Shown piece after piece: positions 1,694 to 59,239 of a stretch of 64,000 nt of DNA. Position 1 is the first letter of the stretch; every line of letters starts with the position of its first letter. The notes below the pieces were generated by a model. The model ran no database searches. It was given only the letters and a program-made list of their open reading frames with translations, and had not been told where the DNA came from. Source of the DNA: Drouetiella hepatica Uher 2000/2452 (GTDB lineage: Bacteria > Cyanobacteriota > Cyanobacteriia > Elainellales > Elainellaceae); the NCBI GenBank assembly GCA_019359505.1, contig JAHHHD010000003.1, positions 1 to 64,000 on the forward strand. The letters run 5' to 3'. Position numbers and translations under genes: made by a program.

Positions 1694-1780
1694 AATTAAG
1701 TTAGGACGAGTTATTTTTTGAGAGCCGCGCTCCGCGCGGCTCTCAAAAAATAACTCATTGGATCTAAGCGCGTAGCGCTA
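1694..1780. repeat. 87-bp palindromic repeat, copy 1
   Basis: A 23-bp perfect stem (1708-1730 with 1734-1756) closed by the loop TCC, with short conserved flanks. The same 87 bp recur at 34481-34567 with three mismatches. This copy lies between two convergent genes, where it could serve as a bidirectional terminator. Confidence 0.85.
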
Positions 1781-17784: not shown

Positions 17785-18141
17785 TTGGATACAGGGTAGC
17801 CCTTGAGAGGTGAGGATTTTTAGTGGCGTGGGCAAAGCCCACGCCATTAAAAATCCTCACCTAAGTACCACTACCAGACACAGTTAGAGCGACATAGTTT
17901 TTGAGAGAAATACGCTGCACACCTTTCAAAAAGTAAGCGTTGCTGATGTACCTGTAGCTTGGACATTCCGCCCACACTACAGGTACATTTTTATTCAGAA
18001 ATTTCCTAGATCACGCGATGTGCGACTCTTTTTCTAAGGCTCTTGATCTATGTGGGACAGGCATCTTGCCCGTCCGAATCTGGGGAGGCAAGATGCCCAT
18101 CTACAAGACTTTCAGACCAAGTTGGACGTCGCGTTAGATCC
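17785..18141. other. Gene-free stretch after dps
   Basis: This 357-bp gap between two convergent genes holds the long palindrome at 17808-17862. It also has a partial inverted repeat around TGTACCTGTAG / CTACAGGTACA (17947-17986), and GGCATCTTGCC / GGCAAGATGCC near 18059-18097. All look like transcript-end structures. I see no gene. Confidence 0.5.
17808..17862. repeat. Long palindrome, 26-bp stem, AAA loop
   Basis: Arms from AGGTGAGG... to ...CCTCACCT pair over 26 positions, with one G-T wobble and the inner GC-rich part GGCGTGGGC / GCCCACGCC. Loop is AAA. It is immediately downstream of dps and probably ends that transcript. The architecture is the same as the palindromes at 1708, 19728, 34492, 41203, 56615, 58749 and 59203. 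Confidence 0.8.
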
Positions 18142-19470: not shown

Positions 19471-19905
19471 GTTGAATAGCCGGGATGGGAGGAGAATGGG
19501 TAGTGCTGGCATCAAGTAACTCTTTTAATCATTACCTGATGAGAAATTAGAGATAAGTAAATGAGACATAGTTGAGAACTACGTCATTATTATTTTTAAA
19601 TAGAGGTACGATCGATTCAGGATTACATCCGGATGAATGATCAAAGTTAATGACGGTCATTCGCTTAATTTAGCTCCCGCTGTCCTGGCTTAATTTTGTG
19701 AATTTATAGCTGTCGCCAGTTTGCTTAGGACATTTTGGGTGGGGCGCTTCGCGCCCCACCCAAAATGTCCCCGTCCTCACCCCTTTGGCGGTTACCATAG
19801 CAATCATTACGAAGTTCTAGCTGCAAAAGCGCTACACCGGAGAAGTCGATCCCTTGCTCGATTTCCTCTAACGAATTTCCCCAACGCATCGCTTTTAACC
19901 ATTTG
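19471..19905. other. Divergent intergenic region with palindrome
   Basis: This 435-bp gap between divergent genes is AT-rich from 19516 to 19700. It contains the palindromic repeat at 19711-19777, which cannot be acting as a terminator for converging genes here. No further gene is visible. Confidence 0.45.
19711..19777. repeat. Palindromic repeat family 2, copy 1
   Basis: A 20-bp perfect stem (19728-19747 with 19751-19770, inner part GGTGGGGCGC / GCGCCCCACC) and loop TTC, with flanks TGTCGCCAGTTTGCTTAG and CCCGTCCT. The same unit recurs at 41183-41248. Confidence 0.85.
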
Positions 19906-34480: not shown

Positions 34481-34567
34481 AATTGAGTTAGGACGAGTTA
34501 TTTTTTGAGAGCCGCGCTCCGCGCGGCTCTCAAAAAATAAATCATTGGATTTAAGCGCGTAGCGCTA
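34481..34567. repeat. 87-bp palindromic repeat, copy 2
   Basis: Matches 1694-1780 at 84 of 87 positions, including the 20-bp inner stem and loop TCC. One mismatch breaks a pair in the outer stem. It lies between the MITE and the phosphatase gene. Confidence 0.85.
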
Positions 34568-41182: not shown

Positions 41183-41248
41183 TGTCGCCAGTTTGCTTAG
41201 AGCATTTTGGGTGGGGCGCTTCGCGCCCCACCCAAAATGCCCCGTCCT
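41183..41248. repeat. Palindromic repeat family 2, copy 2
   Basis: Same unit as 19711-19777: TGTCGCCAGTTTGCTTAG, then a stem with inner GGTGGGGCGC / GCGCCCCACC, loop TTC, then CCCGTCCT. In the outer stem an A-T pair of copy 1 is G-C here. It separates the convergent ferredoxin operon and pnp. Confidence 0.85.
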
Positions 41249-52998: not shown

Positions 52999-55872
52999 TT
53001 AGCTCACCTTAAATTGACCCACACCCTCTTGCAGCAGTTGCGCCACCTTTTTCAGTTCCTCAAAAGAAGACGAAACCTGGCTGGCATCTTGCGAAGTTTT
53101 ATTGGCGCTGGCTGCCACATCTTTCATGGTTTGAGTCACGGTTTCGGAAGCCTGAGACTGAGTGACGGTTGCTTGAGCGATCGCCTCCACCAGTTCACTA
53201 ATCTGAGCGCTGACAGCCGTAATTTTGTTCAAACTTTGGCGCGTTTCATTCACAAGCTGAGTTCCTGTGACCACCTGCTCAATACCCGATTCCATCGCCG
53301 TCACCACTTCGCTAGTTTCTGTCTGAATATTGCTGACCAGCTTGCGAATTTCTTCGGTTGCCTCGGCGGATTGACGTGCCAGCGATCGCACTTCGTTTGC
53401 CACCACCGCAAAACCTCGCCCCTCTTCTCCAGCCCTAGAAGCCTCAATAGAAGCATTGAGCGCCAGCATGTTGGTTTGCGCAGCAAAGGCGCTAATTAAC
53501 TCCACCACCTTGGAGATCTTTTGGGAAGATTCTCCCAGATGTTTAACCTTCTTTGCCGTATCGGCAACCGTAGAGCGAATCACCTGAATCCCTGCAACAG
53601 TGCGGTTCATGACGGCATCTCCTTCTTCCACCGTTTGTGCCGCTTGCTGTACCGCCATCTCTGCTTGCTCAGCGCTGGCGGCAACCGACTGCACCGTATT
53701 CGCCATACCCTTCACAATTTCTAGCGCGGCAGAAATTTCCTCTGCTTGCTGCAAGGCATCTACCGAGAGGGCTTGAACAGAGGCTTCATTGTTACTGGCA
53801 GTGGCTGTCACCTGGTTAGTCGCTTCTTGCACTTGCAGAACAATCTTCCGCAGGCTGCTGACTGTGGCGTTGTAGGAGTCAGCGATCGTGCCAATTTCAT
53901 CTACCGTCACCTTTGCCCGAATCGTCAAGTCGCCTCGGCTAATCGGATCAACCTCCATCAGCAGCTCTAGCGCCCGTCTTTGTAAACTTTCTTTTAACTG
54001 ACGCTGTTCTGCGGCAAGTGCAGTGGTTTGCTCTAGCAAATTAATCCGATAAATGGAGAGTCCTATCTCATTGCCCAATCGCTTCAGGAAGCTAATTTCT
54101 GACTCTTGCCAATGACGATGAGCCGCACAAGAATGTCCAATTAGCAGTCCAAACAGCTGCCCCCCACCAAAAACGGGGACAACAAGATTAGACTTAACCT
54201 CCAGACGCTTGAGCATCTGCAAGTGATCGGGATGTAAATCTGCCGCAAATACATCCTGAGCAACGATCGTTCGCCCCTGTCGATATTGTTCCAGCAAATC
54301 ATCTGGAATACAGGTATCGTCAACATTGCCTTGCAGGGCACTTGTCCAACCTGTATCCACTGATTCAGAGACTATTCCGGCTTTTGATTCTGTGTTGAAG
54401 CGATAGATAACCACGCGATCGAGATTAAGAATCTGTCGAGCGCCCTCAACTGCCTGATCAAAAATATCTTGTAAATCCGCAGCGCTTACCACTCCCGAAC
54501 CTTTTGCGGCTGTTAGCAGACGTTCCTGCTGCACTTCAAAGATTTGCGCCACCAGAGCATCCTGAAGCCGAGCCGCCATGCTGTTGATGTTTGTCCCCAA
54601 GGAGGCAATTTCGTCTGATCCTTGGACAACCAAACGCGTGTCAAGTTCTCCTTGACCAATTTTTTCTACCGCATCTGCCGCAGATAGAATCGGACGGGTG
54701 GCGCGGTTAGCAATAGCTGAGGCGATCGCCCCAATCAGCAACGTCGCAATACCCACCCCCAAAATCAAAATCAGCAGCAGTTGACGCTGGGGCGCAAAAG
54801 CAACTGCCGTATCCACGGCAATTATTGCCCTCCAACCTAGATCGGGCAATCCTTGCATTCGCACAGGCGGCGCATAGGCAATCAGCTGCTCCTTATTGGA
54901 TTTAGTATTGCGAGAAATCACCGTGCTCAGCTGATTCGTCCCCTCAAAACCTGCAAGCGCCGGAAAAATTTCTTGAGGTTCGATCGCCTTAAAGTCACCC
55001 TTGCGCGTATCGGCTTCGCCAGATGAGAGCTGTTTGACATAGGCTCCTTCTGGGCCAATAAAAGCTTCTCCAGCGCCATCGATCAGATAGTACTGGGTTC
55101 CGGGCGTAGCATAACTTCTGAGCACCTCTTCTAGAGCGCTCACTGGCATTCTGGCGCGAATCACGGCGATCGGTTCACCCGTATCCTTATCTTTGACCGT
55201 AGAGGCTGAAAATACGCTAAAAATACCGGAGACATTGGAAATTTCAGGCTGACCTAGAATCGGGCCATTGGCTTTAAGCGCGGCTTGAAAGTAGCGGCGA
55301 TCGCCCAGGTTATTAATCGGTTCTCCGTCGGTTTGGGCAATCACATTTCCCTTGAGATCTAAGAGGGCAATGCTGTCATAGATGGTGTAGCTTCGCTTGA
55401 TCCGGTTAAGGGCTGCAACTCTGTCGCGGTTTGAGGCTCTTGCTCTGAGATCCGGATCGATCAAAATATCCAGCCCCGCCATCACCTGAATATCGCTGAA
55501 ACGATCGCGCATGAATTGGTTGACCTTGCTTTGCAGATCAGCCGCCCTCACTTTCTCAAATTCCTCAACTTGAGCCGTGACGGATTGATCGGCAAAGTAA
55601 TAGGCAACTCCCCCAATGGTCAAAACTGGAGCGGTTCCAATTAAAAAGGCGATCGCAGAGGCTTTGGTTCTGACACTCAGATCTCTCCACCACCGAGATT
55701 TTTGTAATTTTGCCGATCGTCCTGTCTCCTCCAAGCCAGCTAATTGAACCGGATGAAGCGCCGGAGAAGATTCTTCCCAAACGGTGTCAGAAACAGTATC
55801 AGATTTAGGAATCACGAGAGGAGAATCCTGTGGAGAAGCTTCAAGATTGGGTTTGGGGAACATCTGGGTCAT
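52999..55872 (-). CDS. Methyl-accepting chemotaxis protein with dCache and GAF domains
   Basis: A 957-residue receptor. Order: cytoplasmic leader (about 60 residues), TM1, a periplasmic dCache-like sensor (about 100-370, [18 protein letters not shown] and [10 protein letters not shown]), TM2, HAMP (about 390-450), GAF domain (about 470-620), second HAMP-like segment and the MCP signalling domain with the hairpin tip [20 protein letters not shown]. The layout is like PixJ/TaxD receptors, but the GAF segment reads [22 protein letters not shown] with Asp where bilin-binding relatives have the chromophore Cys, so it is probably not a photoreceptor. Confidence 0.9.
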
Positions 55873-55992: not shown

Positions 55993-56571
55993 CTAGGGCA
56001 TTGCCTCAGCGATCGCTTCTCCATCCAAAACTGCCAGCATGTCATCGCTCAAGTTCCACCAATATCCGCGCAGAAATTGCGTGATCTCTGGCGTAGCAGC
56101 AGAAAGGGATAAAGCCTGAATCTGATGAGGATCACACCACTCCATCTCACCAATTTGACTAACCACCAGCCCCAATGTCCGGCTTTTAGCAGATGCAGAC
56201 CTAGAAGCAGGGCTAGCAGGCAGACGAATTTGCAGCACAACTGCTGCATGGGCTGAAACAGCCTGCTGCTCATACCAGGGAGCTAACCCGCACAAGTGGC
56301 AAAGGTCAACCATCCACAGCACTTCTCCTCGCCAGTTATAGACACCCATGACCCAGGTGGGCATATGGGCAATGGGGACAATTTGACCGATCGGTACCGT
56401 CAATACTTCAGTCATCTGCCCTACCGACAGCAAAACCGGAGTATTTAACAGGCGGAGTCGCAAAAATTGTTCAGTGTTAGCTGGAATCGAAGCAGGTGTG
56501 GGTTCGATTCCAGTTTCAATTTCAGCCGCAGTGGGCGATAGGTAAAAATCAGTCGCAGAAGAATCAGACAT
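55993..56571 (-). CDS. CheW-like adaptor protein
   Basis: About 192 residues with one CheW domain (about 50-175): LLNTPVLLSVGQMTEVLTVP, WVMGVYNWRGEVLWMVDLCHLCGL and TLGLVVSQIGEMEWCDP. It would couple the MCP at 52999 to the CheA kinase at 47159, like PixI in phototaxis clusters. The frame is open further upstream to 56670, but that extension is the translated palindrome at 56615-56673 (NFCLRGARSAPLKQKF), so the ATG at 56571 is used. Confidence 0.88.
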   Translation of the reverse strand: MSDSSATDFYLSPTAAEIETGIEPTPASIPANTEQFLRLRLLNTPVLLSVGQMTEVLTVPIGQIVPIAHMPTWVMGVYNWRGEVLWMVDLCHLCGLAPWYEQQAVSAHAAVVLQIRLPASPASRSASAKSRTLGLVVSQIGEMEWCDPHQIQALSLSAATPEITQFLRGYWWNLSDDMLAVLDGEAIAEAMP

Positions 56572-56614
56572 AGAGCTTCTCAAGCTAAAAGATTTTTTGG
56601 TGGTGCTGATCTCT

Positions 56615-56673
56615 GGGATGAATTTTTGTTTGAGAGGGGCGCTTCGCGCCCCTCTCAAACAAAAATTCATCCC
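56615..56673. repeat. Long palindrome family 3, copy 1 (28-bp stem, TTC loop)
   Basis: Perfect 28-bp arms (56615-56642 and 56646-56673) from GGGATGAATTTTTG... to GGGGCGC, loop TTC. On the minus strand it is preceded by GGCATTGCTTAATG. It matches 58749-58807; both differences in the stem are compensated in the other arm. It lies just upstream of the CheW gene, within its 5' leader. Confidence 0.9.
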
Positions 56674-56711
56674 CCATTAAGCAATGCCGATTTTTTAGAC
56701 CTAGATTTTTG

Positions 56712-56909
56712 GGCGTTGCTGAATCTTGGCGTTGCTGAATCGAAACATGAATCTGTCTGAGCTGTCAGTTCTCTCGCCCTCTTTCTTGCTTGCCGCAGGC
56801 ACTTTTCTTGCCTACCGCAGACGCTAAACCCCGATTCCAGGGAACTTCCAAACCCTTCAAAGTCCCCCAAAATCGACTGGGGGCATTCATCCTTATATTC
56901 AGCAACGCC
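56712..56909. mobile_element. MITE-like element with GGCGTTGCTGAAT ends
   Basis: GGCGTTGCTGAAT occurs at 56712-56724 and 56728-56740, and its reverse complement ATTCAGCAACGCC at 56897-56909. AA(C/T)GCCGATTTTT follows the right end and also occurs to the left (56681-56696). GGCGTTGCTGAAT is, from memory, an end sequence of cyanobacterial IS elements. No transposase is inside. Confidence 0.65.
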
Positions 56910-56932
56910 GATTTTTACGCTTAGCTTACTGC

Positions 56933-57298
56933 CTAGCTTTTCATCAGATTTTTAATTGTGCGCATCAGTTCTGCTTGGTCAATCGGCTTGGCAAGATAGG
57001 CATCTGCCCCCTGTTTCATGCCCCAAAATTTGTCCATCTCGCTGCCTTTAGTAGAGCAAAGCACCACAGGAATATCGCTGGTATCAGCTTCAGCCTTGAG
57101 CTGACGACACACCTCAAAGCCGCTGCAACCCGGTAGAACCACATCTAGAACAACAGCATCAGGCTTTTGCTGCGTAATGGTGGCGATCGCCTCTTCTCCA
57201 CTCTGAGCAACCAGAACATTAATGCCTCCCTGCTGCAAACAGTGGATCAAAATTTGCATATCTGTTATCGAATCTTCAACGACTAGCACAGTACCCAT
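56933..57298 (-). CDS. CheY-type single-domain response regulator
   Basis: A 121-residue receiver domain: opening GTVLVVEDSITDMQILIHCL with the acidic pair, phospho-acceptor Asp in AVVLDVVLPGCSGFEV, and conserved Lys in YLAKPIDQAELM. There is no output domain, so it acts by protein-protein contact, like PixH in pilus-motility clusters. The ATG at 57298 begins the domain directly; a longer frame to 57355 overlaps the end of the PatA-like gene and adds unrelated residues. Confidence 0.93.
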   Translation of the reverse strand: MGTVLVVEDSITDMQILIHCLQQGGINVLVAQSGEEAIATITQQKPDAVVLDVVLPGCSGFEVCRQLKAEADTSDIPVVLCSTKGSEMDKFWGMKQGADAYLAKPIDQAELMRTIKNLMKS

Positions 57299-57354
57299 GG
57301 CAGTGACCTCAATAGAACAATAGGGCAGATGAGAAAAGCATGATGAGAAGAGCA

Positions 57355-58632
57355 TTAAGAAGACAGATCAGCCGCCAGAGAACGGTTTGTCTGTGGTTGC
57401 AAATGCTGACGAACAACCCGAAGAACAGCCTCAGCCTCTAAAGGCTTACTGAGAAAATCTGATGCACCCACAAAATTCGATCGCAAACGGTTGGCATAGC
57501 CGTCACTGCTGGTCAAAATGACGATCGGCGTATGCCGAAATAAAGAAAGCTTGCGCAACTGCTCACAAATTTCATGCCCGTTGGCGTTGGGCATCATCAG
57601 ATCCAGAAAAATAAAATCAGGCTTGCGAGCTAGCAAAATGCCGATCGATCGCAGCCCATCATCTACTCCTATAAACTGATAGCCCGCAGAAGTCAGCAGC
57701 TTCTCCATCATGTGGCGCACCAAAAAGCTGTCATCGACACAGGCGATCAGCTTTTGCTGCATGACTTGAGGCACGACTCGCTGGGCAGGTAAAGCATTAC
57801 AGGGATAGCGCGGAGTCGGCAAATCAGGAATCTGAATCAGCTCTATCCAACCTAGTTGAATAAAAGGCAATAGAGACAAAGTGACTTCCGTAACGTCCCG
57901 TCGCATTTGTACTGCCAGATCTTGTAGCGTATGCTGTCCATTCAATAGCGTCACTAGATTTTGATAAAATGCCGCAGAAGTCTGTCTTTGAATCTGTTCA
58001 GCTTGCCGAATCACAGGCGCTTTTTGGGGCGAATAGTTGCCAAGCTTAGCGTCCTGCCAGGTCTGCCAGCGCACCTGTGCCCTTGCCGTAGCTTTTTCTA
58101 ATTTAATGAGGCGAAGTCGCGTTGATAGGAGATTATTCTCATAAACTTGGTCGGTGAGTGTACCAGCCTGAAAGATTTCAAACAGTATGTCAACAATGTT
58201 AGACAGAATGACTTTGGCGGCTTGCTCGTCGGTGATTTCTTGTCGGGAAACCCATAAATTTAGCAGCGCATATTCCCAGCCGATCGCACAATCAGAGGCG
58301 CTAAGATACTTTAGGTCTGATATCCATGCGTCTTCTTGTACAGATTCTTGTATAGAAAATGTTGTGGAGGTGTGGACTTTTAGTTGAGCGTTTTGAACAG
58401 CTTCAGTTTTTTCAACAGCCTCAGCTTTATGACCCATTTGTGTAGTCTTACGAATACCGTGCAGAATTAAATTTCTACGCCAACGCTTGACGGGATGTTC
58501 GCCCCCGGTTGCATAAACGATCGAGCCTTGGGACAAGTAGAATCTCCACTGCCGATTAGCTGAGTCCGTACGTATTAATTGACCGCTGAACCGAAGCTGT
58601 CCTAAATTCCTCAAAAAATAAAGATGTTTCAC
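57355..58632 (-). CDS. PatA/PixG-like response regulator with DUF4388
   Basis: A 425-residue protein. The N-terminal region (about 1-130) is a DUF4388 domain (LGQLRFSGQLIRTDSANRQWRFYLSQGSIVYATGGEHPVKRW), the middle is helical with a winged-helix-like part (LLNGQHTLQDLAVQMRRDVTEVTLSLLPFIQLGWIEL), and the C-terminal receiver domain has FIFLDLMMPNANGHEI and SKPLEAEAV. PatA-type regulators act in heterocyst patterning and in phototactic pilus control (PixG). It is the first gene of the minus-strand cluster PatA-like, CheY, CheW, MCP. Confidence 0.9.
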   Translation of the reverse strand: MKHLYFLRNLGQLRFSGQLIRTDSANRQWRFYLSQGSIVYATGGEHPVKRWRRNLILHGIRKTTQMGHKAEAVEKTEAVQNAQLKVHTSTTFSIQESVQEDAWISDLKYLSASDCAIGWEYALLNLWVSRQEITDEQAAKVILSNIVDILFEIFQAGTLTDQVYENNLLSTRLRLIKLEKATARAQVRWQTWQDAKLGNYSPQKAPVIRQAEQIQRQTSAAFYQNLVTLLNGQHTLQDLAVQMRRDVTEVTLSLLPFIQLGWIELIQIPDLPTPRYPCNALPAQRVVPQVMQQKLIACVDDSFLVRHMMEKLLTSAGYQFIGVDDGLRSIGILLARKPDFIFLDLMMPNANGHEICEQLRKLSLFRHTPIVILTSSDGYANRLRSNFVGASDFLSKPLEAEAVLRVVRQHLQPQTNRSLAADLSS

Positions 58633-58748
58633 GAACTAAGCCTCTGGGAGCGGAGGGGAAGATATCACCCGATATCAAGAGCTATTTTGATCGCAAAATA
58701 ACTTGCTAAAAATCAGTTCATGGTTCAAATGCGGCATTGCTTAATCGG

Positions 58749-58807
58749 GGGATGAGTTTTTGTGTGAGAGGGGCGCAAAGCGCCCCTCTCACACAAAAAC
58801 TCATCCC
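58749..58807. repeat. Long palindrome family 3, copy 2 (28-bp stem, AAA loop)
   Basis: Perfect 28-bp arms (58749-58776 and 58780-58807) with loop AAA, preceded by GGCATTGCTTAATCG. Compared with 56615-56673, two stem base pairs have changed from A-T or T-A to G-C, in both arms each time. Confidence 0.9.
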
Positions 58808-59202: not shown

Positions 59203-59239
59203 TGGGGGAGTTCGCGCCCTGCGGGCGCGAACTCCCCCA
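59203..59239. repeat. 17-bp palindrome, TGC loop
   Basis: TGGGGGAGTTCGCGCCC and its reverse complement pair perfectly around TGC. It abuts the previous hairpin. Same architecture as the other long palindromes of the window. Confidence 0.8.

What the first reader, a model, noticed from the sequence alone, without database searches (positions are those of the whole stretch)
56615..58807. Two long palindromes whose stem differences are compensated
56615-56673 and 58749-58807 each have a perfect 28-bp stem and a 3-nt loop (TTC, AAA). They differ at two stem positions, and each time both arms changed so pairing is kept (A-T to G-C, T-A to G-C). They share an outer GGCATTGCTTAAT flank. Independent drift would break pairing; here either structure is under selection, or one arm is copied from the other during replication or repair.
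Basis: seen in the sequence. Interest (0 to 1): 0.62.

Follow-up and report, generated by a model that had tools for sequence, protein, structure and literature searches.

The report
Jumping DNA hairpins with self-copied arms
The two palindromes are copies of a short mobile DNA element found in this and related cyanobacteria, and their two arms most likely stay matched because one arm is now and then copied from the other, so paired changes here need not mean a working RNA.

Summary
In detail: two hairpins with perfect 28-bp arms differ at two stem pairs, both compensated. They belong to a dispersed ~90-bp MITE-like family with ends GGCATTGCTTAATC / GGCGTTGCTGATTTTA and 8-bp target duplications (27 of 59 rows at >=7/8). 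Copy 1 has a perfect GATTTTTT duplication, and same-genus genome G002 lacks the insert. Two ISAs1-type IS loci in another relative have the same kind of ends and duplication.

Compensation exceeds chance: 60 paired changes against a shuffle maximum of 36. They concentrate next to the loop and at the stem base. In a set chosen by its left end only, pairs 5-24 hold 35 paired and 11 one-sided cells of 647, while tip pairs decay like the right end.

Paired transversions and indels, loops in both orientations, and one copy whose right end repeats the left favour arm copying by template switching, a known mechanism. Selection is not excluded. I did not find this family described in the open papers searched.

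The parts
56591..56598 (.). left 8-bp target duplication of copy 1, GATTTTTT
   Evidence: identical to 56689-56696
56599..56614 (.). copy 1, end of the GGCGTTGCTGATTTTA type (here GGTGGTGCTGATCTCT)
56615..56673 (.). copy 1, hairpin core: 28-bp arms, loop TTC
56674..56688 (.). copy 1, end of the GGCATTGCTTAATC type, reverse complement (CCATTAAGCAATGCC)
56689..56696 (.). right 8-bp target duplication of copy 1, GATTTTTT
   Evidence: insert absent from G002
58733..58748 (.). copy 2, end of the GGCATTGCTTAATC type
58749..58807 (.). copy 2, hairpin core: 28-bp arms, loop AAA
58808..58823 (.). copy 2, degraded right end (TAAAGTCAGCCTTAGA where TAAAATCAGCAACGCC is usual); no target duplication recognised
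   Evidence: one search placed the right end elsewhere and found no duplication (0 of 8)

Best explanation
Each palindrome is the core of a ~90-bp non-autonomous mobile element (MITE-like) with ends of the kind found on an ISAs1-type insertion sequence and 8-bp target duplications. The arms stay complementary while their sequence changes because a nascent DNA strand sometimes folds back at the loop, is primed by a few loop-proximal bases, and copies the other arm (quasipalindrome template switching). A one-arm mutation is then either erased or put into both arms. The primer zone next to the loop is not corrected; copying can overshoot into the element's end, and the loop can be turned round. 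Shown: the family, its ends, target duplications, one empty site, the excess of paired changes, their position in the stem, both loop orientations. Inferred: that replication template switching is the agent, and which transposase moves the element.
For: Excess of paired changes: 60 cells in pairs 7-24 against mean 22.5 and maximum 36 in 2000 shuffles. End-ascertained G020 set, 35 hairpin-bearing of 48 sites: one-sided change per site 11/1294 in pairs 5-24, 15/280 in pairs 1-4, 19/410 in the right end without L203; mid vs end p=5e-6, tip vs end p=0.72. Transversions are 14 of 33 distinct paired substitution states in pairs 5-24, like changes in the ends (41 of 111, p=0.68), whereas a route through G-U would give transitions. 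Paired indels: one T in L036, two bases in L146. Loops TCC and GGA both occur with marker 15G and with 15A, ends fixed in orientation. In L203 the right end repeats the left end's GCTTAACAGGG. L317: four paired substitutions in pairs 5-24, two of them transversions, and no one-sided change in pairs 1-24.
Against: Raw one-sided counts exceed paired ones in every genome. 15 of the 35 paired cells in the G020 set are one state shared by a subfamily and 6 are another, so independent events are fewer (12 distinct states, three of them one 3-bp deletion); one-sided events, 11 cells in 6 copies, are of the same order. The zone borders were chosen after seeing the profile, and many tip changes are C/T at CpG, so hypermutability could mimic an uncorrected tip. 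Changes at asymmetric end sites go to the partner arm's base in 32 of 68 cases, only mildly above one third, and some of these rows have doubtful orientation. A second family in the same genome shows 1 paired and 15 one-sided cells of 920 in its 40 best copies. Only one clear overshoot case was seen.
Confidence: 0.66

Rival explanations
1. The hairpin is selected after insertion, as an RNA (mRNA stabiliser, processing site, small RNA) or as a DNA cruciform or protein-binding site, and second-site mutations restore pairing.
For: Mid-stem pairing is kept far better than the ends. Copies lie near genes; the two in the window sit in a gene cluster of chemotaxis type. L038 has a nearly perfect stem although both ends have decayed (9 of 24 end sites changed).
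Against: Transversions and paired indels are frequent among paired changes. Loop inversion and the L203 end are not expected. Tip pairs, which a folded hairpin needs, decay at the rate of the end. Copy 1 is absent from G002. No Rfam match at the gathering threshold in the window. The stem is followed by no T run, so it does not read as a terminator (by eye).
Confidence: 0.18
2. Pairing is kept only through transposition: perfect palindromes transpose better, or arms are equalised while the element moves, and copies at rest simply decay.
For: Many paired states are shared by subfamilies (15 copies share 15 G>A); decayed copies exist; the young second family has mostly one-sided changes.
Against: Copies with decayed ends keep stems that are perfect or nearly so (L033, L036, L038). 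23 of the 36 distinct paired states in pairs 7-24 occur in one sampled copy each, although unsampled relatives may carry them.
Confidence: 0.11
3. Assembly artefact: short-read assemblers equalise the two arms or mis-orient the loop.
For: 8 of 48 G020 sites lie within 80 bases of a contig end, i.e. the contig stops in or near the palindrome. A k-mer graph with k below the arm length cannot orient the loop (own reasoning).
Against: 28-bp arms are too short to hold a bubble at k of 21 or more (own reasoning). The same assemblies keep many arm mismatches. Target duplications match across the hairpins. Joining halves of different copies would make mismatches. No closed sequence was available to check: none in the plasmid collection.
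Confidence: 0.05

Closest known systems
MITEs of cyanobacteria (Nezha, named in PMC3733652; 147 MITEs of Anabaena sp. 90, PMC3542288)
   Same: short, non-coding, multicopy, inverted ends, duplicated target
   Different: this family has a near-perfect hairpin core with 28-bp arms; I did not compare sequences with Nezha or the Anabaena set
ISAs1-family insertion sequences
   Same: two loci in G029 have transposase pieces of this family between ends GGCATTGCTGAAT / GGCGTTGCTGAAT with 8-bp duplications CATTTAGA and AAACGTGC
   Different: the palindromic element codes for nothing; its own genome's ISAs1-type genes do not show these ends
REP / REPIN elements
   Same: dispersed hairpins in which compensatory changes on both sides are common (passage of PMC3116915)
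   Different: no GTAG/CGTC tag seen; ends with 8-bp target duplications instead; RAYT not searched for
Quasipalindrome template switching (E. coli reporters, PMC7202029; yeast, PMC8604942; RNA hairpins, PMC8794818)
   Same: homogenised arms, inverted spacer, multi-base footprint
   Different: here read from natural copies of one mobile family in cyanobacteria; not observed as an event

Membership tests
MITE | short, non-coding, dispersed copies | tested here: met
   ~90 bp; 58 matches from 40 scored of 184 candidates in the own genome
MITE | terminal inverted repeats | tested here: met
   imperfect ends GGCATTGCTTAATC / GGCGTTGCTGATTTTA; 59 of 97 rows have both
MITE | target-site duplication | tested here: met
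   27 of 59 rows (25 of 57 without duplicate rows) at 7 or 8 of 8; null about 0.05%
MITE | empty site in a relative | tested here: met
   copy 1 absent from G002; tested for the window copies only
MITE | moved by a transposase of an IS with the same ends | tested here: inconclusive
   ISAs1-type loci with such ends in G029, both with a split reading frame; none recognised in G000, G002, G003, G020
REP/REPIN | GTAG or CGTC tag at the foot of the hairpin | tested here: not met
   conserved flanks are the ends above, read by eye
REP/REPIN | RAYT (REP-associated tyrosine) transposase | not tested
   no search run
Intrinsic terminator | stem directly followed by a T run | tested here: not met
   sequence of both copies, by eye; no terminator scan run
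Quasipalindrome template switching | changes that make the arms more complementary, including indels and multi-base tracts | tested here: met
   the multi-base tract rests on L203 alone
Quasipalindrome template switching | inversion of the spacer | tested here: met
   loops TCC and GGA with the ends fixed, in both marker backgrounds
Quasipalindrome template switching | shown to arise during replication | not testable with these tools
   needs a reporter assay

The most novel reading that the evidence does not exclude
The family is a natural, replicated record of template switching in bacteria: dispersed hairpins whose arms are homogenised except for about four loop-proximal pairs that act as primer, so that base-pair covariation as strong as in a functional RNA arises and persists without selection on structure. 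Covariation alone would then mistake such elements for structured RNAs, and the copies would let switch rate, primer length and tract length be measured.
Probability: 0.4. Interest if true: 0.62.

Novelty: new member of a known kind. Interest (0 to 1): 0.42.

Why it matters
Compensatory change is the usual proof of a functional RNA stem. Here it appears in mobile hairpins with target duplications and is most likely produced by a copying process. That cautions against calling structured RNAs from covariation alone, and it gives many natural copies on which the proposal that template switching maintains hairpins can be measured; the authors of PMC8794818 call their own evidence for maintenance circumstantial (discussion read).

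Tried and rejected
Rfam scan of the window: no match at the gathering threshold. Shared insertions between G000 and G002, G003, G020: only matches above 150 bp were listed, giving three locus pairs (L138/L027, L168 with L030 and L022 which are one place, L151/L047) and no clearly shared insertion; L138 and L027 carry elements in opposite orientation upstream of the same gene, and L168/L030 is a weak match to a fragment. So no orthologous comparison was possible. Transposase with the same ends in the own genome: none recognised among the PF01609 and PF13808 loci. Plasmid collection: no match. Asymmetric end sites turning into the partner's base: 32 of 68, inconclusive. The second hairpin family was dropped as a rate estimate because its 40 copies are the best-scoring of 278 candidates. 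That G020 is Phormidium tenue FACHB-886 and G003 the MAG JACQYI is inferred from equal contig lengths.

Rows dropped before counts: one search collapsed 147 hit clusters to 97, which also removed some distinct copies with identical cores. One search set aside 21 of 97 rows without a recognisable hairpin. One search excluded 5 of the remaining 76, leaving 71. One search used 35 of 48 sites, six of them cut in the right arm. One search skipped 5 of 127 end halves, after leaving out halves cut by more than two bases. score only the best 40 candidates per genome, so those samples lean to intact hairpins. Alignment inflates some one-sided counts: L019 lost the same two bases in both arms but is scored as seven one-sided cells, and two of the 15 one-sided cells are the two halves of one paired T deletion in L302.

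Full report
Observation. Both palindromes are as described: perfect 28-bp arms, 3-nt loops, two compensated stem differences. Twenty first-order Markov resamplings of the window gave no perfect arm above 12 bp. The common flank is in opposite orientation in the two copies.

What it is. A search of the own genome (6.4 Mb, 87 contigs) gives 58 matches from 40 scored of 184 candidates, many of them the two strands of one palindrome. Copies share outer ends GGCATTGCTTAATC and GGCGTTGCTGATTTTA around a hairpin with arms of about 28 bp. Of 97 rows collected from four genomes, 59 have both ends, and in 27 of these the flanking 8-mers agree at 7 or 8 positions, against about 0.05% in offset controls (two copies appear twice, so 25 of 57). 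Copy 1 has GATTTTTT on both sides. Genome G002, of the same genus, lacks copy 1 and also a neighbouring element at 56712-56909 with related ends. Two loci of relative G029 carry ISAs1-type transposase pieces between ends of the same kind, with 8-bp duplications CATTTAGA and AAACGTGC. Eleven PF13808 loci in G000, G002, G003 and G020 show no matched pair of such ends that I could see, so the mobilising enzyme is inferred. The end GGCRTTGCTGAATH occurs in 52 of 60 genomes searched, the own one included. The exact apex GAGAGGGGCGC-N3-GCGCCCCTCTC was found in 26 stretches of the named genome collection, 17 of them from Phormidium tenue FACHB-886; three of the others (L121, L123, L126) are labelled as non-cyanobacterial and were not examined.

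Compensation. In 71 copies, compared with five subfamily consensus sequences that I chose by eye, paired / one-sided cells are 39/62 of 732 in G000, 6/9 of 79 in G002, 29/57 of 382 in G003 and 21/32 of 731 in G020. But in pairs 7-24 the 60 paired cells exceed each of 2000 shuffles of right arms within genome and subfamily (mean 22.5, maximum 36), and one-sided cells pile up near the loop and at the foot of the stem. Shuffling does not remove relatedness; 23 of the 36 distinct paired states in that zone were seen in one copy only.

A less biased sample. Because score only the best 40 candidates, I collected all 48 places in G020 that match the left end alone with at most one mismatch; 35 carry a hairpin. 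Pairs 5-24: 35 paired and 11 one-sided cells of 647. Pairs 1-4: 7 and 15 of 140. Foot of the stem: 2 and 25 of 116. Right end: 24 changes of 425 sites, or 19 of 410 without L203. One-sided change per site is thus 0.85% in mid-stem, 5.4% at the tip and 4.6% in the right end; mid versus end p=5e-6, tip versus end p=0.72, mid versus tip p=5e-6. Cautions: 15 of the 35 paired cells are one state shared by a subfamily and 6 another; the zone borders were set after seeing the profile, and the two data sets overlap; many tip changes are C/T at CpG.

Copying or selection. (1) Transversions make 14 of 33 distinct paired substitution states in pairs 5-24, like changes in the ends (41 of 111, p=0.68), but 7 of 44 one-sided mismatches (p=0.019); a route through G-U would give transitions. 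(2) Paired indels: one T lost from both arms in L036, two bases lost from both arms in L146, two bases lost from both arms in L019. (3) With the ends fixed in orientation, loops read TCC or GGA with marker 15G and with 15A, so the loop has turned round more than once or recombined. (4) In L203 the right end reads GCTTAACAGGG like the left end, while its outermost bases stay of the right type. (5) L317 carries four paired substitutions in pairs 5-24, two of them transversions, another at pair 2 and a paired 2-bp deletion, with no one-sided change in pairs 1-24. (6) Two elements have lost the hairpin but keep both ends and an 8-bp duplication: L098 in G000 and L308 in G020. Against: decayed copies exist; the family around 1708 and 34498 shows 1 paired and 15 one-sided cells of 920 in its 40 best copies, with loops 32 TCC, 6 GGA, 2 TCT; only one clear overshoot was seen.

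How it most likely works. The tip pairs act as primer when a nascent strand folds back, the rest of the arm is copied from its partner, and the strand returns to the template; this would explain an uncorrected tip, a corrected middle, paired indels and rare overshoot. Loop inversion needs a variant in which both arms are crossed. All this is inference from the pattern; no event was observed.

Literature seen. PMC8794818 (outline with abstract, and discussion): template switching can create and maintain RNA hairpins. PMC8604942 (abstract and introduction): switching homogenises inverted-repeat arms and inverts spacers; earlier proteobacterial evidence is cited there. PMC7202029 (passages): E. 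coli quasipalindrome reporters. PMC3116915 (passages): compensatory changes in REPINs. PMC3733652 and PMC3542288 (passages): cyanobacterial REPs and MITEs. The mechanism is therefore known. I did not find this element described in searches, which cover open-licence papers only; Elhai et al. 2008 on very small mobile repeats in cyanobacteria was not held and could describe relatives.

Context. Copy 1 lies between a response-regulator gene (56933-57355) and a CheW-like gene (55993-56568); copy 2 lies upstream of another response-regulator gene (57355-58632); a methyl-accepting protein gene follows at 52999-55872; all four are on the - strand. Whether the insertions affect them is untested.

Noticed in passing
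window 1708-1756 and 34498-34540: Two copies of a second, more uniform hairpin family (core GAGTTATTTTTTGAGAGCCGCGC); at least 40 copies in the own genome, with loops in both orientations.
   Followed up: partly
window 19728-19770 and 41202-41240; L053, L054: A third hairpin family (GGACATTTTGGGTGGGGCGC). L054 differs from L053 by a compensated C-G to T-A pair (GGATAT...ATATCC).
   Followed up: no
window 17808-17862 and 59203-59239: Further long near-perfect or perfect hairpins of unknown family.
   Followed up: no
window 56704-56917: A second MITE-like element (56712-56909) with ends GGCGTTGCTGAAT and flanking GATTTTTG / GATTTTTA, 15 bp beyond copy 1's duplication, with an extra internal end at 56728; also absent from G002.
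   Followed up: partly
L192, L196, L202, L204, L205, L304, L305, L306 (G020): 8 of 48 end-matched sites lie within 80 bases of a contig end, so this assembly tends to break at the palindrome.
   Followed up: partly
L098 287-322 and L308: Elements reduced to their two ends: the hairpin is gone but the 8-bp duplication remains.
   Followed up: no
L121, L123, L126: The exact hairpin apex also occurs in records labelled Chloroflexi, Dormibacteraeota and Phytomonospora; chance, mislabelling or transfer not examined.
   Followed up: no
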